Source: Burkholderiales bacterium (lineage in GTDB: Bacteria > Pseudomonadota > Gammaproteobacteria > Burkholderiales > UBA11063). Taken from it: DNA of 50,462 bases. Below are positions 1,077 to 49,917 of the stretch, piece by piece. The stretch is from NCBI GenBank assembly GCA_019744945.1, contig JAIETT010000085.1:1-50462 (forward strand), in the 5' to 3' direction. The position numbers and the translations under genes were made by a program. Under the pieces are notes generated by a model. That model saw nothing but the letters and a program-made list of their open reading frames with translations. It did not search any database and was not told the DNA's origin. The stretch's first letter is position 1; each line of letters begins with the position of its first letter.

Positions 1077-2240
1077 CTATTCGTAAACTCCTTTTAATTT
1101 ATACCCGTCCTTTAAGCTGCTATCTGGAATCCATTTAGCATAAACGTTATATACCATTTGAACGTTGGCATGTCCAAGCTGTGATGCAATCCATGCAGGC
1201 AATTCTCCATTACTTAATAGCATACTTGCATAACTATGTCTAGTTTGATACGGGTAGCGATAACGAACTCCTGCGGCCTTTAATAATTTTTTCCAGTGAT
1301 AGCGTATTTTTTCACTATCTAGCCACCGTTGATTTGTATTAGGATTGTGGAATACAAAGTTATTTGCCATTTCCGTAAATTTTTGCTGGTAAATTAATGC
1401 CTCAGTTGCCTTTGGTAACAATAAAACTTTTCTAATTCCAGCTGAAGTTTTAGGGGATTTTTCTTGTCCTTCAACAATATTGTTTGTTATATTTACCACG
1501 CCAGCACTAAAATCAATATCAGACCATCGTAGAGCGATTAATTCCCCAGTTCTTAACCCGGAGTAAAATGCGAATTGAATTAAGTTTTTTAATTGGCCAG
1601 TTGCATGATTAATGATAATATTTTTTTCCTCTTCATTAAAAGGGTCAATCTCTTGTTTTTTTGGCAATGAAATATCTGTAATTAGAGATTCAATTCCAGC
1701 ATTATCAAATGGATTGATGCTGATATATCCAGAGTGCACCGCTTCCTGCAATATAGAACGCAGTGGTGTTAATTTATTGTAAAATGTCTTGGAGCTTAAT
1801 TCTTGCATTAATACCCATTGACGAAGTATTTTAGGCGTTACTTCATATAATTTGTATTCACCAAGATCAGGAATTAACTTATTTTTGATAATTTGCTTGT
1901 AACCATCATATGTAGATTTTGCCATATTGCCAACATCATGTCGCCGTTTGTAAATTGCAAGCTGAGTTAAAAGCAAATCAGCACAAGTTATTGTTGTGCT
2001 GATTGGTATAAACATCTTTACTCTTTTTGAGTTTGGAAAATGCCGTTTATAGTCGAATTTATTTTGTTCAATTTCCAATTCAATAGTTGCTTTTAATCTA
2101 ATGGCGTATTTGATATTTTTTGGTGACGGTTCGAGCTTGAGAGTTTCGCGGCATCTGATGTTGTTATAATAAAAGTCTATCTGAATGGCGGTACCGCGAA
2201 TACGTACCCCAGATATTACCTCTTTCTGTTCTCTTCCCAC
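1077..2240 (-). CDS. int: tyrosine-type phage integrase
   Basis: Arm-type N-terminus, GLRTGELIALRWSDID, TRHSYASMLLSNG, LGHANVQMVYNVYAKW catalytic motifs. Confidence 0.95.
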   Translation of the reverse strand: MGREQKEVISGVRIRGTAIQIDFYYNNIRCRETLKLEPSPKNIKYAIRLKATIELEIEQNKFDYKRHFPNSKRVKMFIPISTTITCADLLLTQLAIYKRRHDVGNMAKSTYDGYKQIIKNKLIPDLGEYKLYEVTPKILRQWVLMQELSSKTFYNKLTPLRSILQEAVHSGYISINPFDNAGIESLITDISLPKKQEIDPFNEEEKNIIINHATGQLKNLIQFAFYSGLRTGELIALRWSDIDFSAGVVNITNNIVEGQEKSPKTSAGIRKVLLLPKATEALIYQQKFTEMANNFVFHNPNTNQRWLDSEKIRYHWKKLLKAAGVRYRYPYQTRHSYASMLLSNGELPAWIASQLGHANVQMVYNVYAKWIPDSSLKDGYKLKGVYE

Positions 2241-14817: not shown

Positions 14818-16091
14818 AAAATATCGAATTAAATCTAGCTAGTTGTATCGTAGCTGACAATAGTTTGTTCAATCAATACCGTGGCAAGCTACAGCCTGAG
14901 TTTTTCGCTGATGCGGCTGTAAATCACTTAATAAAATGTTTTCATAACTCAGTTAATCTGCAAATTACTCCAGCGGTAGTTCGCGATTATTTCAAGTCAA
15001 ACATTCAACTGGATTTAACGCCAAATTTAAGCCAGTTCACGGCAAATTTACAGCAGTTGATGAAACAACATCAAGAGCGTTTACTGCAAGATACCGTGAT
15101 GTCATTTATGGCTGAGTCAATGACGAAACCGCAAGACTTGTTAGCTAAAGAAATGATAGTTAAACTCTCTGAAATCATTGATTTAACTAAGCTTGAAGCT
15201 GATAACGTTGTCGATCGTAATTGGTTGCTTGGCAATATTCAAGATGTTTATGAACATCAATCTGACTACATTAAAACAGGTTATGCGGTGATTGATAACC
15301 AAACGCCAATTGAAGTTGGTTCGGTAGTAGTTTTAGTTGGTAACACTGGCACAGGTAAATCAACTGTTGCCATGAATATTTACACGCGGATGTTGATGCT
15401 TAAGCAAAAAGGTATTTACGTTTCTATGGAAATGACTGAGCGCTCAGTTGCTAAACGTATTTACAACATTTATGCTGAAAAAAAACTTAAAAAAGATAAC
15501 ATCAGCGCAACTGATTTGGACAAGGTTTATGATGGATTTGCCAACTCAGATGGGCACATGATTATCGTTGAACCACGGCTAGATATAAACATTTTAAAAC
15601 GGCATATTTTAGCCTACAAAAAAGCAGGGTATAGCTTTGCTATTGTTGATCATTTACACCGCATGAAACTTCGTCCAGGTTGCCAGAAACATGAGGGAAT
15701 TGCTGAAATTATGCGTGAAATTCGCAATATTTCAATTGAAAATAATTTTACTATTTTTGTTTTAGCACAGGGCAAATCCGACAATGTCAAGAGCATAACG
15801 AATAATCGTTTAGGATTTGACGGTATTGCTGGTAGTCAAGAAATTAGCTGGGAAGCTAACTATATTTTTATGTTGCATCGTGAAGCATATTTTAGAGCCC
15901 AAAAAGGTATGGCTGCTAAGGTTCCTGATGCTATGCGTTGGATTACAGAGGTTAATTGCGTTAAAGCCCGTGAGAACGAAGATACAGGGGAGTCGCTGCT
16001 ACCATCGTTTTGTCTCTCGTATCGCGGCGGTGCATTACGTGAATCTACTGGTGATGAAACGGTGGAGTATCGTTTGTCTTTAAACAGTTAA
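14814..16091 (+). CDS. DnaB-like replicative helicase
   Basis: Walker A GNTGTGKST, SMEMTERSVAKRI, AIVDHLHRM, VLAQGKSDN. Confidence 0.9.
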   Translation: MKNIELNLASCIVADNSLFNQYRGKLQPEFFADAAVNHLIKCFHNSVNLQITPAVVRDYFKSNIQLDLTPNLSQFTANLQQLMKQHQERLLQDTVMSFMAESMTKPQDLLAKEMIVKLSEIIDLTKLEADNVVDRNWLLGNIQDVYEHQSDYIKTGYAVIDNQTPIEVGSVVVLVGNTGTGKSTVAMNIYTRMLMLKQKGIYVSMEMTERSVAKRIYNIYAEKKLKKDNISATDLDKVYDGFANSDGHMIIVEPRLDINILKRHILAYKKAGYSFAIVDHLHRMKLRPGCQKHEGIAEIMREIRNISIENNFTIFVLAQGKSDNVKSITNNRLGFDGIAGSQEISWEANYIFMLHREAYFRAQKGMAAKVPDAMRWITEVNCVKARENEDTGESLLPSFCLSYRGGALRESTGDETVEYRLSLNS

Positions 16092-16122
16092 GCAGAATTT
16101 ATCATTAAGAAAGAGGTGTAAT

Positions 16123-16257
16123 ATGAAATGGAATAACTTTATTGATTTTGGTAAGTGGTGGCGCAAACTTTACGGGAGCGACCGTCCAAGCATTAATGAA
16201 ACTCAGCGCCGTATGCGCTCCAATCGTTGCATCGGTTGGAAAGGGTACAGGGTTTAA
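16123..16257 (+). CDS. 44 aa hypothetical protein
   Basis: MKWNNFIDFGKWWRKLYGSDRPSINETQRRMRSNRCIGWKGYRV*; RBS aaagaggtgta. Confidence 0.5.
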   Translation: MKWNNFIDFGKWWRKLYGSDRPSINETQRRMRSNRCIGWKGYRV

Positions 16258-18293: not shown

Positions 18294-18323
18294 TTGACAG
18301 AAAGCCATGGATTAGGATAGAAT
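18294..18323 (+). promoter_or_regulatory. sigma70 promoter of first C4-like leader
   Basis: TTGACA-18-TAGAAT. Confidence 0.7.
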
Positions 18324-18349: not shown

Positions 18350-18549
18350 TTGAAAACTCCTTTGTCTAGCGGTTAGCCGCTTCCGATATACATGGCTTTT
18401 TTTATATCTATACCTACCTATAGGTGTGGTTTCAAACCTACCCTAAACTTGCCGCGGTTTCAAACTATAGCAAGAACCAATGGCAGGAGAGGGCGAATAT
18501 AATACCCGCAAGGGGAATAAGCCTAGCCGTCTAGACACGGTGTTTTCAA
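18350..18549 (+). ncRNA. C4-like antisense/leader RNA, copy 1
   Basis: TTGAAAAC...TGTCTAG (seg1) complementary to CTAGACA...GTTTTCAA (seg2); located between promoter and Rha-type gene. Confidence 0.65.
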
Positions 18550-18622
18550 CTCCTGCCTTACCCAACAATTTGAAAACTTGTTTGGTAAGTTATTGAAAAC
18601 AATCTATGTCTAGGATCACATC

Positions 18623-19801
18623 ATGTCAAAAAATCAACTACCAATGGCGATAAAACCATCCACAACACCTAAACAACACATTCTGACTAATTTACTTAAC
18701 TGTTTCACCTTTGTGGATGTTGAAAAACAGTTAGTTATCGCAGCACCAATATTCCTACATCTTGGATATGATGAGGAATCAGCTGAGATGGTTTTATCCC
18801 AGCCGATGGTGCAACAATATACTAATTGCGCTGGATTTACCCCACGCGAAACATCATTTATTCGCATAGCTCAAATTGGTGAGCTAATTGTCAATGCGCC
18901 AAAAACTAAATATGTTGCTCACATCCTTGAATTTGTAAAAAACACACTAATGCCATTATTTAAGTCGCAGCAGCAAACTCAAGCGCAGATTAACTCTGAT
19001 TTTAGCCAAGAAATTACATTCAATCCAGTTAATGCAAATCAACCATTAACCATGTCGAGTTTAGAGATTGCTACGATGTGCGATAAAGAGCATCGTAACG
19101 TAATGGCGGATATAAAAAACATGTTTGAACAACTAGATATTAGTAGCGCTGATTTTTCAGCTGTATATAAAGCAAGCAATGGAAAGATGAATCCATGCTT
19201 TAATTTAGACAAAGAAATGTCATTGACCTTGGTTACCGGCTACAACGTCACTTTACGCCATAAAATCATTAAGCGCTGGCAAGAATTAGAAAATCAATTA
19301 ACTGGCGGTATGCCGCAAATTAGCGCCCAGCCAGTTGCTGTTGCACCAGCTCCAACCCGTGGACTACCTAGTGCCAAAGATTTAGCTTTGATGGTGATCA
19401 AATCCGAGGAAGAGAAAGAATCATTGTTAATTGATTATAACTTTCTGAGCGATACGCTTTGCCAGACGATTAGAGAAAAATCTGCAATTAGTTCTAAGCG
19501 TGAAGCATCGGTGATGGGTAAATTAGCCCGCGCCAATGATAAAATCCGTCGGCTGGAAGCGCAAGACGTGCTGGATCTAGATGGTGAAAAACTATCTTTG
19601 ATGCAAATTGCGAATAAATTGAACGTTGCACCGAATGCGATTGCTGCGGTGGTTGCACATTTGGGCATTCTTGGCTTATCTGCACTTGGCGAAGCTCGCT
19701 GCGTCGGTAAAAATAACGGCAAAGATGTAAGAGACTGGTTTTACAATCCTATGGCGGTAATCTTAATTCAACAAAATTTAGAAAGAGGTAAATTATTATG
19801 A
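18623..19801 (+). CDS. Rha-type phage regulatory/antirepressor-like protein, copy 1
   Basis: LTMSSLEIATMCDKEHRNVMADI...GYNVTLRHKIIKRWQELE (Rha domain) plus distinct N- and C-terminal domains. Confidence 0.85.
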   Translation: MSKNQLPMAIKPSTTPKQHILTNLLNCFTFVDVEKQLVIAAPIFLHLGYDEESAEMVLSQPMVQQYTNCAGFTPRETSFIRIAQIGELIVNAPKTKYVAHILEFVKNTLMPLFKSQQQTQAQINSDFSQEITFNPVNANQPLTMSSLEIATMCDKEHRNVMADIKNMFEQLDISSADFSAVYKASNGKMNPCFNLDKEMSLTLVTGYNVTLRHKIIKRWQELENQLTGGMPQISAQPVAVAPAPTRGLPSAKDLALMVIKSEEEKESLLIDYNFLSDTLCQTIREKSAISSKREASVMGKLARANDKIRRLEAQDVLDLDGEKLSLMQIANKLNVAPNAIAAVVAHLGILGLSALGEARCVGKNNGKDVRDWFYNPMAVILIQQNLERGKLL

Positions 19802-19981: not shown

Positions 19982-21154
19982 TTATTGGCTTACCAATAAA
20001 TCAATGAGATCAGCATAATCCTGCAGTAGTTTTGCGCGCGGTTCGCTGAGGTGTGTCTTAAGGTATGATTTGTTTACGCCTTTTTGAACATGACCCAATG
20101 CCATGTCAATAACTTTATAACTGTGGTTATTGTCAGCCAATAAAGTCATTGCGGTACGTCGCGCATCATGAGGAGTAAATTCACCAATTCCATATTTCTC
20201 ACCCAATTGTTTACAGTAGCGGCATAGTGTATCGCCACTATAATGCTCTTCGCGACAATTAAATACATATTTTGCCGCAGGATGTTTTTGTCGTAATTCC
20301 TTCAGTTTATGTACCAGCTGAAGAGGTATGCGGACAATGAAATTATCAATGCGTTTGGCATTTCTCACGGTGACTTTTTGATTAATCAAATCAATATCAG
20401 ACCATTCAAGACTAAGTAATTCATTGCGGCGTAGCATAGTGATAAATAACATATAAATAGCTGTTTTAATTGTTATTGGTATGTCATCATCATTCCATAA
20501 ATTCTTAAATAACCCACCCAATTTATTTTCATTTAAATATCGCGTGCGAACATTTATTTTATATCTGGCTTTTATATTAATCTCAAGCTTTTGCATGATA
20601 TATTTTTCATCATAAGCAAATCTGAAGATGGCTTTTATCTCGCGGAGTAAAGTTGCTGCAGTTGATGGTGATTTATGTTTCACTCGGTCAATAACACAAG
20701 CAATATCGGTTTCGGTAATTTTAGAGATAATCGTGCTATTCAACAGCGCAGCTTTATTTAGTACGGCAACCAACTTTGCTTTGGATTGTGCTTTAAGTGA
20801 ACGTTTGCATGAATCAATATAGATATCAACTATAGTACCAAATGTCTTGCCGAGTTTGGTCTGTTCTTTCTCATGAGTGTGGACGTTAATACCTTTACGT
20901 ATTAGACTGCGCATTTCATCCGCCAGCACTCTTGCTTTACTTAGAGTAATGTCGCGAGCGTCACCAATTAGCTTCCAACTTAACTGTGTCTTGTCACCTA
21001 TTTTGCTTTGTGTTCTTAGCTTCCATACATACGAATGTTTATTTTTGAATAGGTATAAGTTATGACCATCATGTAGAGATGAACCAAATAGTGATTCCCG
21101 CATAAAGTCATTGATATTTTGTTTAGTGAGTAGTTTAGATTTTATCTTTGGCAT
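19982..21154 (-). CDS. second tyrosine integrase (P4-like, DUF4102-type N-terminus)
   Basis: LYLFKNKHSYVWKLRTQSK..., TMLRRNELLSLEWSDID, HDARRTAMTLLADNNHSYKVIDMALGHVQKGVNKSYLKT. Confidence 0.95.
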   Translation of the reverse strand: MPKIKSKLLTKQNINDFMRESLFGSSLHDGHNLYLFKNKHSYVWKLRTQSKIGDKTQLSWKLIGDARDITLSKARVLADEMRSLIRKGINVHTHEKEQTKLGKTFGTIVDIYIDSCKRSLKAQSKAKLVAVLNKAALLNSTIISKITETDIACVIDRVKHKSPSTAATLLREIKAIFRFAYDEKYIMQKLEINIKARYKINVRTRYLNENKLGGLFKNLWNDDDIPITIKTAIYMLFITMLRRNELLSLEWSDIDLINQKVTVRNAKRIDNFIVRIPLQLVHKLKELRQKHPAAKYVFNCREEHYSGDTLCRYCKQLGEKYGIGEFTPHDARRTAMTLLADNNHSYKVIDMALGHVQKGVNKSYLKTHLSEPRAKLLQDYADLIDLLVSQ

Positions 21155-36830: not shown

Positions 36831-36847
36831 AGGTTGATGCAAAAGCA

Positions 36848-36890
36848 AAACCCCGACGAGTTAGCGCTCATATGTCGGGGTTTTTTCATA
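36848..36890 (+). terminator. intrinsic terminator
   Basis: aaaaccccgacgagttagcgctcatatgtcggggttttttc. Confidence 0.8.
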
Positions 36891-36962
36891 AGAATAAGAA
36901 AGGATATTATAATCGAAAACAAGACAGAAGTCAAGCTAAAAGCTGACAAAGGAGCGGTTAAA

Positions 36963-39398: not shown

Positions 39399-39426
39399 TT
39401 TACAAATTTGTAAATCATGATATAAT
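39399..39426 (+). promoter_or_regulatory. promoter of second C4-like leader with palindromic operator
   Basis: TTTACA-16-TATAAT; TTTACAAATTTGTAAA perfect 16-bp palindrome covers the -35. Confidence 0.75.
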
Positions 39427-39437
39427 ACGGGCAGGAA

Positions 39438-39573
39438 TTCAAAACTCCTTTAGTTAACTGTAAGCGGCGCCAACCGTTCAATGGCTTTTTTATTTTCCAC
39501 GCCCAAAAATCAATGGGTTGGAGTGCGACTAATATATTGAATATGTCCAGCCGTCTTACAGCGGTGTTTTGAG
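39438..39573 (+). ncRNA. C4-like antisense/leader RNA, copy 2
   Basis: TTCAAAAC...CTGTAAG (seg1) complementary to CTTACAG...GTTTTGAG (seg2). Confidence 0.7.
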
Positions 39574-39632
39574 CTCCAGCCCTACCCACAAGGTAGATAA
39601 TTCAAAACAACTTTCCCTGTAAGGAAATCATC

Positions 39633-40799
39633 ATGACTAAACAATTGCCAATGGCTATAAATTTGTCCATGGAATCAAAACAACACGTTTTAGAAAATCT
39701 TCTTAACTGCTTCACATTTGTTGACACCGAAAACAAACTGGTTATTGCTTATCCAGTCTTTTTGCATTTGGGGTATACCAAAGAATCAGCACAGGCAGTT
39801 TTATCTAAGCCGATGCTGTTACAATATACTAACCATAAAGGATTTGTCCCACGAGAAGATTTTTTCATTAGCATAGCTCAAATTGGTGAGCTAATTGTTA
39901 ATGCGCCAGAAGCTAAATATATATCTCATGTACTTGAATTTGTAAAAAACACGCTAATGCCATTATTTAAGCCAGCAGCACCTCAAACGTCACCAGAGAC
40001 AAATAAAATTGAATTAAATCCAGTTAAGGCAAGCGAGCCGTTAATGATGTCGAGCCAAGAGATTGCAAATGTTGTTAAACGTCGTCATGATAACGTAAAA
40101 CGCACGATGGAAATGTTACAGAACAAAGAGTTAATTAGTTTTACTCAAATTGAGGAAAACTCTGAAAGTAAAGTTGGCCGCCCTAAAACGGTATACCATG
40201 TTAACAAACGAGATAGCTATGTGGTAGTCGCGCAACTATCGCCAGAATTTACCGCCGATTTAGTGGATCGCTGGCAAGAATTAGAAAATCAGTTAGCTGG
40301 TGGTGTGCCACAAATTAGCGCACAGCCTGTTACTACAGCTCCAGCATTACCGAGCGCCAAAGATTTGGCCTTGATGGTGATCAAATCCGAGGAAGAAAAA
40401 GAATCTCTTTTAATCGACTATAATTTTTTAAGTAAAGAACTTTGCCAAACGATTCGAGAAAAGGCGCAAATTGGCTCCAAGCGCGAAGCTTCAGCATTAG
40501 GCAAATTAGCCCGCGCGAATGATAAGCTCAAGTTACGCGATGAGAAAATTTGTCAACTTGAGGCAAAATTAAGCAGCCCTGTGTCAGAATATGAGTATGC
40601 AACAATTTTAGCAGTGCAAAGTCGGCTGAAATATATAAAAGTTAGCGGTTTGAAATTAACTTACTTCTGTAATCGAAATGGTTTAGTTATTAAAGACATT
40701 CCAGATGACCGCTATGGTGCGGTACATTCGTATCCAGCGCAAGCATGGCGAGATGTGTATCAGATTGATATAAATGCAGTTTTAAATAAGGTAGCATAA
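39633..40799 (+). CDS. Rha-type phage regulatory/antirepressor-like protein, copy 2
   Basis: Shared N-terminus and linker with 18623-19801; LMMSSQEIANVVKRRHDNVKRTMEML...SKVGRPKTVYHVNKRDSYVVVAQLSPEFTADLVDRWQELE (Rha domain). Confidence 0.9.
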   Translation: MTKQLPMAINLSMESKQHVLENLLNCFTFVDTENKLVIAYPVFLHLGYTKESAQAVLSKPMLLQYTNHKGFVPREDFFISIAQIGELIVNAPEAKYISHVLEFVKNTLMPLFKPAAPQTSPETNKIELNPVKASEPLMMSSQEIANVVKRRHDNVKRTMEMLQNKELISFTQIEENSESKVGRPKTVYHVNKRDSYVVVAQLSPEFTADLVDRWQELENQLAGGVPQISAQPVTTAPALPSAKDLALMVIKSEEEKESLLIDYNFLSKELCQTIREKAQIGSKREASALGKLARANDKLKLRDEKICQLEAKLSSPVSEYEYATILAVQSRLKYIKVSGLKLTYFCNRNGLVIKDIPDDRYGAVHSYPAQAWRDVYQIDINAVLNKVA

Positions 40800-40800
40800 A

Positions 40801-40923
40801 ATGGCAGAAAAATTTAGTAATTATTTTAATGGGCGGATGGTGCGTTTTCTGGAACATGAAGATCGGCTGTATGTTGATACCGATGATCTGGCGTTACTCT
40901 TTACCGAGCCAACCAAGCATTAA
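40801..40923 (+). CDS. 40 aa micro-ORF analogous to 19798-19944
   Basis: MAEKFSNYFNGRMVRFLEHEDRLYVDTDDLALLFTEPTKH*. Confidence 0.5.
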   Translation: MAEKFSNYFNGRMVRFLEHEDRLYVDTDDLALLFTEPTKH

Positions 40924-40976
40924 TTTGAGTGTTACCAGCCAAACCGGTAACCGAGTAAAACAGATAGTTATAACTA

Positions 40977-41002
40977 AAGCCACCTTCGGGTGGTTTTTTT
41001 AT
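40977..41002 (+). terminator. intrinsic terminator
   Basis: aaagccaccttcgggtggttttttta. Confidence 0.8.
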
Positions 41003-41036
41003 TGGAACTAACAATTAATAGCATAGGGATTATGGC

Positions 41037-49536: not shown

Positions 49537-49917
49537 ATGCACTTAATTAAATTAGAAGAACTTATTAAAACTCATCTGGTAATGACTAGTAGAGACATTG
49601 CTGATTTAACTGGAAAAACAGTTGGACATATTAATCGTGATATTAAAGCTATGCTTAAAGAGCTTAAACCAAGCTACCCAGATTTGGATAGTGAGTATAG
49701 AACAGTTTGTTATGAACAAAATACTGGTTTTGGAGTTAAACTGAATACCATGTTTGAGTTAGATAAAAGATTAACGCTTTGTTTAACTTCTGGGTATTCA
49801 GCTAAATTAAGATTAAAAATCATTGACAGAGTTGCAGAATTAGAATCTGAAAATAACTCCCTCAAAGCTCGAATTAAGTCTGCTCATGATGATATGGAAT
49901 TAATTAAAGTGCATTAA
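49537..49917 (+). CDS. third, short Rha-type regulatory protein
   Basis: VMTSRDIADLTGKTVGHINRDIKAML...LTLCLTSGYSAKLRLKIIDRVAELE. Confidence 0.8.
   Translation: MHLIKLEELIKTHLVMTSRDIADLTGKTVGHINRDIKAMLKELKPSYPDLDSEYRTVCYEQNTGFGVKLNTMFELDKRLTLCLTSGYSAKLRLKIIDRVAELESENNSLKARIKSAHDDMELIKVH

What the first reader, a model, noticed from the sequence alone, without database searches (positions are those of the whole stretch)
18350..18630. Second C4-like switch with different but internally matched sequence: three-way covariation
Seen: seg1 TTGAAAAC (18350-18357)...TGTCTAG (18363-18369); seg2 CTAGACA (18531-18537)...GTTTTCAA (18542-18549); seg3 TTGAAAAC (18593-18600)...TGTCTAG (18607-18613) overlapping the SD tagga before ATG 18623. 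Compared with the 39438 locus both pairing blocks differ, yet all three segments changed together (TGTCTAG/CTAGACA/TGTCTAG versus CTGTAAG/CTTACAG/CTGTAAG). An enclosing stem also covaries: GGCAGGAG/CTCCTGCC (18482-18489/18550-18557) versus GGTTGGAG/CTCCAGCC (39516-39523/39574-39581). Inference: two orthogonal switches in one prophage, each insulated from the other.
Basis: partly seen in the sequence, partly recalled or inferred. Interest (0 to 1): 0.9.

Follow-up and report, generated by a model that had tools for sequence, protein, structure and literature searches.

The report
Matched antisense-RNA switch for antirepressor gene
The leader of this prophage antirepressor gene carries a small antisense RNA like the C4 RNA of phages P1 and P7; two such switches in this one prophage use different, internally matched pairing letters, and the same is true of more than a hundred relatives, which suggests a large family of separately addressed RNA locks on phage genes.

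Summary
At 18350-18613 two short blocks (a TTGAAAAC, b TGTCTAG) occur in the 5' leader, as complements inside a predicted C4-type RNA (18482-18557; Rfam sRNA-Xcc1, 57.9 bits), and again over the Shine-Dalgarno of a Rha-type antirepressor gene. The 39.4-kb locus has the same anatomy with other letters. This three-part plan is that of P1/P7 C4 (a1b1, C4 a'b', a2b2), and P1 versus P7 already shows matched change in all three segments. Across 174 C4-like leaders, 74% match their own downstream target strongly, against 3% of mismatched pairs; at least 114 specificities exist. Predicted cross-pairing between the two window loci is at background. The host genus carries up to 10 C4 loci per genome and 3 on one prophage contig. 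That this insulation was selected is not shown (within-genome cross-matches 2/114 versus 32/756, p=0.30). Beyond the finding: locus 2 is a discrete 1.6-kb promoter-to-terminator cassette found at different places in near-identical phages with different block letters; locus 1 has a fourth 'a' copy in a hairpin loop; and Rfam's 'virulence' sRNA-Xcc1 looks like an antisense RNA of its neighbouring gene in 18 of 21 members tested. New variant of a known kind.

The parts
18294..18323 (+). sigma-70-like promoter TTGACA-18-TAGAAT of locus 1
   Evidence: 11 of 12 consensus positions; about 20 nt before the a1 block
18350..18369 (+). segment 1: a1 TTGAAAAC (18350-18357) and b1 TGTCTAG (18363-18369), equivalent to P1 a1b1
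   Evidence: complements of C4 a'/b'; never reached in 1000 shuffles; P1 a1/b1 annotated at the same place
18482..18557 (+). C4-type antisense RNA (closing stem GGCAGGAG/CTCCTGCC)
   Evidence: Rfam RF02221 sRNA-Xcc1 57.9 bits, above the gathering score 53; predicted fold -27.5 kcal/mol
18531..18549 (+). segment 2: b' CTAGACA (18531-18537) in the hairpin loop and a' GTTTTCAA (18542-18549) in the linker
18558..18588 (+). hairpin TTACCCAACAA/TTGTTTGGTAA with an extra 'a' copy (a*, 18570-18577) in its loop
   Evidence: two 'a' copies between C4 and b2 in 20 of 30 genus loci against 26% of mismatched controls
18593..18613 (+). segment 3: a2 TTGAAAAC (18593-18600) and b2 TGTCTAG (18607-18613), b2 overlapping the Shine-Dalgarno AGGA
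   Evidence: own score 16.4
18623..19801 (+). ant1, Rha-type antirepressor, 392 aa
   Evidence: Pfam Phage_pRha 1.8e-15; PHROG anti-repressor Ant 7.4e-22
39399..39426 (+). promoter TTTACA-16-TATAAT of locus 2
   Evidence: 11 of 12 positions, TG before the second hexamer
39438..39464 (+). locus 2 segment 1: a1 TTCAAAAC, b1 CTGTAAG
39516..39581 (+). locus 2 C4-type RNA; b' CTTACAG 39555-39561, a' GTTTTGAG 39566-39573
   Evidence: RF02221 26.3 bits, below the gathering score; own model R1 59 bits, though R1 was built partly from this sequence
39601..39623 (+). locus 2 segment 3: a2 TTCAAAAC, b2 CTGTAAG over the Shine-Dalgarno
   Evidence: own score 15.8
39633..40799 (+). ant2, Rha-type antirepressor, 388 aa, 59% identical to ant1 over 306 aa
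39418..41004 (+). moron-like cassette: -10 box, C4 leader, ant2, small ORF, intrinsic terminator
   Evidence: 93.7% identical block at another genome position in L011, 89% in L010, with the same ends

Best explanation
Each leader is a C4-type antisense switch on a secondary antirepressor gene. One promoter just upstream of a1 makes a transcript holding a1b1, the C4 RNA and the ant gene. The C4 part is cut out (in P1, by RNase P) as a stable RNA of about 66-76 nt whose loop b' and linker a' pair with b2 and a2 on ant mRNA, covering the Shine-Dalgarno and keeping the antirepressor off in a lysogen. a1b1 can pair with C4 in the precursor and probably tunes its maturation or supply. The two loci carry different matched blocks, so each C4 should address only its own mRNA. 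Shown here: anatomy, matching, generality, lack of predicted cross-pairing. Inferred: transcription, processing, repression, role in lysogeny.
For: Exact blocks and b2 on the Shine-Dalgarno; sRNA-Xcc1 match; antirepressor domains. Own target score at least 13 in 74% of 174 loci against 3% of mismatched pairs, upstream copy 77% against 5%, 114 specificities in 128 loci; b2 mostly 6-11 nt before the ATG. Six leaders with the same scaffold differ in the blocks but stay matched; none of the other 719 permutations reaches the observed pairing. P1 record annotates a1, b1, C4, a2, b2 in this order, P7 has other matched letters. Cross scores and energies at background. PMC5320573 reports processing of C4-like RNAs by RNA-seq in A. 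baumannii and cites Citron and Schuster 1990 that 4 nt differences block P1/P7 cross-reaction.
Against: No expression data for this genome. Rfam's own C4 model (RF01695) finds nothing in it, and locus 2 is below the sRNA-Xcc1 cut-off. No icd-like ORF lies between C4 and ant. About a quarter of the loci miss the score of 13, and some C4 copies have no matched target downstream. The duplex-energy ranking puts the own C4 first for only 19 of 30 targets. Antirepressor action of these proteins is inferred from domains.
Confidence: 0.82

Rival explanations
1. A purely intramolecular attenuator: a1b1 and a2b2 of the same transcript compete for C4 a'b', so the choice is made in cis while the RNA is made, with no free antisense RNA.
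For: Segment 1 is present and matched in most loci and its match often runs past a' into the C4 closing stem, as expected if it competes with C4 folding.
Against: C4 has its own closed fold with a maintained stem; its relatives are seen as separate processed RNAs (PMC5320573; sRNA-Xcc1 is an 88-nt RNA with mapped ends, PMC2996969); a few loci (L003, L330) lack a matched segment 1.
Confidence: 0.12
2. The C4-like RNA activates ant translation, as IsrK does for anrP in Gifsy-1.
For: IsrK lies in a similar leader-antirepressor layout and activates in trans (PMC4825925).
Against: Here b2 sits on the Shine-Dalgarno itself, so pairing should block ribosomes; P1 C4 represses (P1 record).
Confidence: 0.04
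3. The two loci are not insulated in the cell: each C4 also represses the other ant.
For: The two targets share parts of the scaffold, and a few within-genome pairs elsewhere score high (L334 on L338, 14.4).
Against: For the window pair, cross scores and energies are at background.
Confidence: 0.08
4. The repeats are DNA sites (operators or recombination scars) with no RNA role.
For: Short direct and inverted repeats near a promoter can be operators (general knowledge).
Against: Blocks keep RNA-type complementarity while their letters change in over 100 loci, at fixed distance from the start codon, inside a conserved RNA fold.
Confidence: 0.02

Closest known systems
C4 antisense RNA of phages P1 and P7 (immI; Rfam RF01695, with the c4-a1b1 motif of Weinberg 2010)
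   Same: Order promoter, a1b1, C4 with b' in a loop and a' in a linker, a2b2 over the Shine-Dalgarno, antirepressor downstream; matched change between P1 and P7 in all three segments.
   Different: No RF01695 match in this genome; no icd ORF between C4 and ant; a2 is 20-35 nt after C4 rather than 4 nt; extra 'a' copy in a hairpin loop in locus 1; two or three loci per prophage.
sRNA-Xcc1 (Rfam RF02221)
   Same: Locus 1 scores 57.9 bits, above the cut-off.
   Different: The literature treats sRNA-Xcc1 as a virulence-linked trans-acting sRNA with many predicted targets (PMC2996969, PMC12189769); in 18 of 21 members tested here the adjacent gene carries a matched target.
Group 1 C4-like sRNAs of Acinetobacter baumannii (PMC5320573)
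   Same: Many C4-like RNAs in one genome with variable a' and b'.
   Different: In the passages read, each RNA was not matched with an adjacent target, and incoming phages or host transcripts were suggested as targets; here own targets are identified.
IsrK-orf45-anrP of Gifsy-1 (PMC4825925) and the P22 immI antirepressor region (the latter from general knowledge)
   Same: RNA control of a secondary antirepressor.
   Different: IsrK activates; P22 uses a convergent antisense RNA (sar) and the proteins Arc and Mnt (general knowledge).

Membership tests
P1/P7 C4 (RF01695) | Match to the Rfam covariance model | tested here: not met
   none in the whole genome; the same search finds P1 and P7
P1/P7 C4 (RF01695) | a1b1, C4 a'b', a2b2 in one co-directional leader | tested here: met
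P1/P7 C4 (RF01695) | b2 covers the ribosome-binding site of the target | tested here: met
   b2 overlaps AGGA before ATG 18623; b2 ends 6-11 nt before the ATG in most loci
P1/P7 C4 (RF01695) | Target is an antirepressor operon with icd first | tested here: not met
   ant follows directly, no ORF between
P1/P7 C4 (RF01695) | RNase P processing to about 77 nt | not testable with these tools
   a predicted closed fold of 66-76 nt is compatible only
sRNA-Xcc1 (RF02221) | Score at or above the gathering cut-off | tested here: met
   locus 1 57.9 against 53; locus 2 fails with 26.3
sRNA-Xcc1 (RF02221) | Control by HrpG/HrpX | not tested
   reported for Xanthomonas only (cited in PMC12444791)

The most novel reading that the evidence does not exclude
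C4-antirepressor cassettes are mobile secondary-immunity modules under diversifying selection: a prophage collects two or three with non-crossing RNA addresses, each cassette changes its address in three places at once while its scaffold and protein stay nearly unchanged, and the addresses define hetero-immunity groups among related phages.
Probability: 0.4. Interest if true: 0.75.

Novelty: new variant of a known kind. Interest (0 to 1): 0.58.

Why it matters
It gives a natural collection of over 100 matched sRNA-target address pairs in one scaffold, a direct way to study how a new antisense specificity arises when three segments must change together. It also offers a testable role for Rfam's sRNA-Xcc1 family, now discussed mainly as a virulence sRNA: repression of the gene next to it. 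For phage biology it suggests several separately addressed RNA immunity channels within one prophage.

Tried and rejected
Nucleotide search of ant1 in phage and plasmid records: nothing. Protein-pattern search of named genomes with ant1: nothing. First pairing scores with loose gaps did not separate own from foreign targets and were replaced by structure-anchored scores. The consensus structure of the first alignment kept only 4 pairs because closing stems of different length misalign, so stem support was measured per locus. A fragment query against phages was ill-chosen and is not used. A P1 stretch at 65 kb was the wrong place. In the pairwise leader alignment, enrichment of differences in the blocks is clear for L010, L014 and L421 but not for L011 (p=0.054) or L240 (p=0.24), because the C4 internal hairpin also differs. 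In the permutation test the b1 block was cut one base out of frame, which lowers the observed pairing (0.77) and works against the claim. Selection for insulation tested and not supported. Orphan C4 copies are not better matched to foreign targets than others.

Full report
Observation. Every letter and coordinate given for locus 1 is right. The blocks are a1 TTGAAAAC and b1 TGTCTAG in the leader, b' CTAGACA and a' GTTTTCAA in the middle, a2 and b2 again before the start codon, with b2 reaching into the Shine-Dalgarno AGGA. Locus 2 at 39438-39623 has the same layout with other letters. In 1000 dinucleotide-preserving shuffles of the target stretches the locus-1 match is not reached in either stretch; locus 2 is not reached downstream and is reached 9 times upstream.

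What it is. The middle segment of locus 1 is a member of Rfam RF02221 (sRNA-Xcc1) above the curated cut-off; locus 2 matches weakly. Rfam's C4 family RF01695 finds nothing in this genome, although it finds P1 and P7 with the same tool. The genes behind both leaders are Rha-type antirepressors, 59% identical to each other over 306 residues. Both leaders start with a good sigma-70-like promoter, though such matches are common by chance in these stretches.

Comparison with P1 and P7. The P1 record annotates a1, b1, C4 RNA, a2 and b2 in the same order and strand, with a2b2 as the site of repression of icd and ant. P7 has different a and b letters in all three places. So three-way matched change between two C4 systems has been visible in P1/P7, and PMC5320573, citing Citron and Schuster 1990, states that 4 nt are enough to restrict cross-reaction. 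Weinberg 2010 (PMC2864571) lists the c4-a1b1 motif.

Generality. Relatives came from viral contigs, the host genus and order, and named genomes. Of 174 distinct C4-like leaders, 74% score at least 13 with their own downstream target against 3% of foreign pairs, and 77% against 5% for the upstream copy; 128 loci with a strong match show 114 specificities. The sets were gathered by C4 core sequence or by antirepressor protein, not by complementarity; leaders of related phages are not independent. Of 21 members of RF02221 above its cut-off, 18 have a strong target on the adjacent gene. The closing stem is kept with changing letters.

Two switches in one prophage. The window reads as one phage: integrase, CI-type repressor, replication genes, ant1, a second integrase, terminase, head, sheath tail, ant2, baseplate, fibres. 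G015 has ten in its genome. In these sets nearly all foreign scores are at background. For the window, C4-1 on ant2 and C4-2 on ant1 give -11.0 and -11.4 kcal/mol against -19.3 and -18.9 for own targets. Whether nature selects this insulation is open: 2 of 114 within-genome directed pairs reach 13, against 32 of 756 between genomes, odds ratio 0.40, p=0.30, and directed pairs are not independent.

Outside the given coordinates. The second locus is a cassette with sharp ends, 39418-41004, from its -10 box to an intrinsic terminator. A 93.7% identical cassette lies between portal and protease in the relative above, and an 89% one between head and sheath genes in IMGVR_UViG_3300028553_000241. In these copies the block letters differ while the scaffold is largely kept. 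In L240 leader and terminator are kept but the protein is another one. This fits the phage 'moron' concept (general knowledge).

Fourth copy of a. Just after C4, locus 1 has a hairpin with TTGAAAAC in its loop. Two 'a' copies between C4 and b2 occur in 20 of 30 loci of the genus set, against 26% of mismatched controls. Locus 2 and its near relatives lack it. P1 has its only a2 close to that place. It may be a loop-presented landing site for a'; this is inference.

Mechanism. The best reading is repression in trans by a processed C4 RNA, with own-only addressing. Shown by sequence: anatomy, matching, predicted fold, position on the Shine-Dalgarno, absence of predicted cross-pairing. Inferred from P1 and from A. 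baumannii RNA-seq: transcription, RNase P processing, repression, antirepressor function. A cis-only attenuator and an IsrK-like activator are the main rivals.

Verdict. A new variant of a known kind: several separately addressed C4-type switches per prophage, partly on mobile cassettes, in a family so far known mainly as a virulence-linked sRNA.

Noticed in passing
window 39418-41004; L011 4668-6254; L010 7776-9363: The C4-ant2 unit is a discrete promoter-to-terminator cassette found at different positions among the structural genes of related phages.
   Followed up: yes
window 18558-18588; L321, L324, L331, L253 and others: Hairpin right after C4 with a further copy of the 'a' block in its loop; absent in locus 2 and its near relatives.
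   Followed up: partly
Rfam RF02221 members in L092-L168, L399: sRNA-Xcc1, described as a virulence-linked trans-acting sRNA, has a matched target on the adjacent gene in 18 of 21 members tested.
   Followed up: partly
L122 7029 and 7272; L151 2025 and 2310; L115 1184 and 1433: Tandem C4 copies in viral contigs where one copy has no matched target downstream; they could act on other phages.
   Followed up: partly
G015 loci L329-L338, L430; G000 C104 (L424): Several C4 switches stand before small proteins (about 90-148 aa) rather than antirepressors; those scanned have no Pfam family above its cut-off.
   Followed up: partly
window 1077-2240 and 19982-21154: Two tyrosine integrase genes in one prophage; the second, between ant1 and the terminase, is 89% identical in G013 and only 37% in L009.
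   Followed up: no
window 36832-36911; L011 4204-4281 and 4445-4515; L010 6624, 11364, 14635: Dispersed terminator-like repeat of about 80 bp at junctions between phage genes in related phages.
   Followed up: no
L420, L421 (G013): Two antirepressors in one prophage share an almost identical N-terminal part but have different domains behind it (Bro-N against KilA-N).
   Followed up: partly
G000 contig C27, about 16078-16141 (L423): C4-like sequence that seems to have lost the b' hairpin and the target; looks decayed.
   Followed up: no
window 49537-49917: Third, short Rha-like protein (126 aa); no C4-like RNA was found near it.
   Followed up: no
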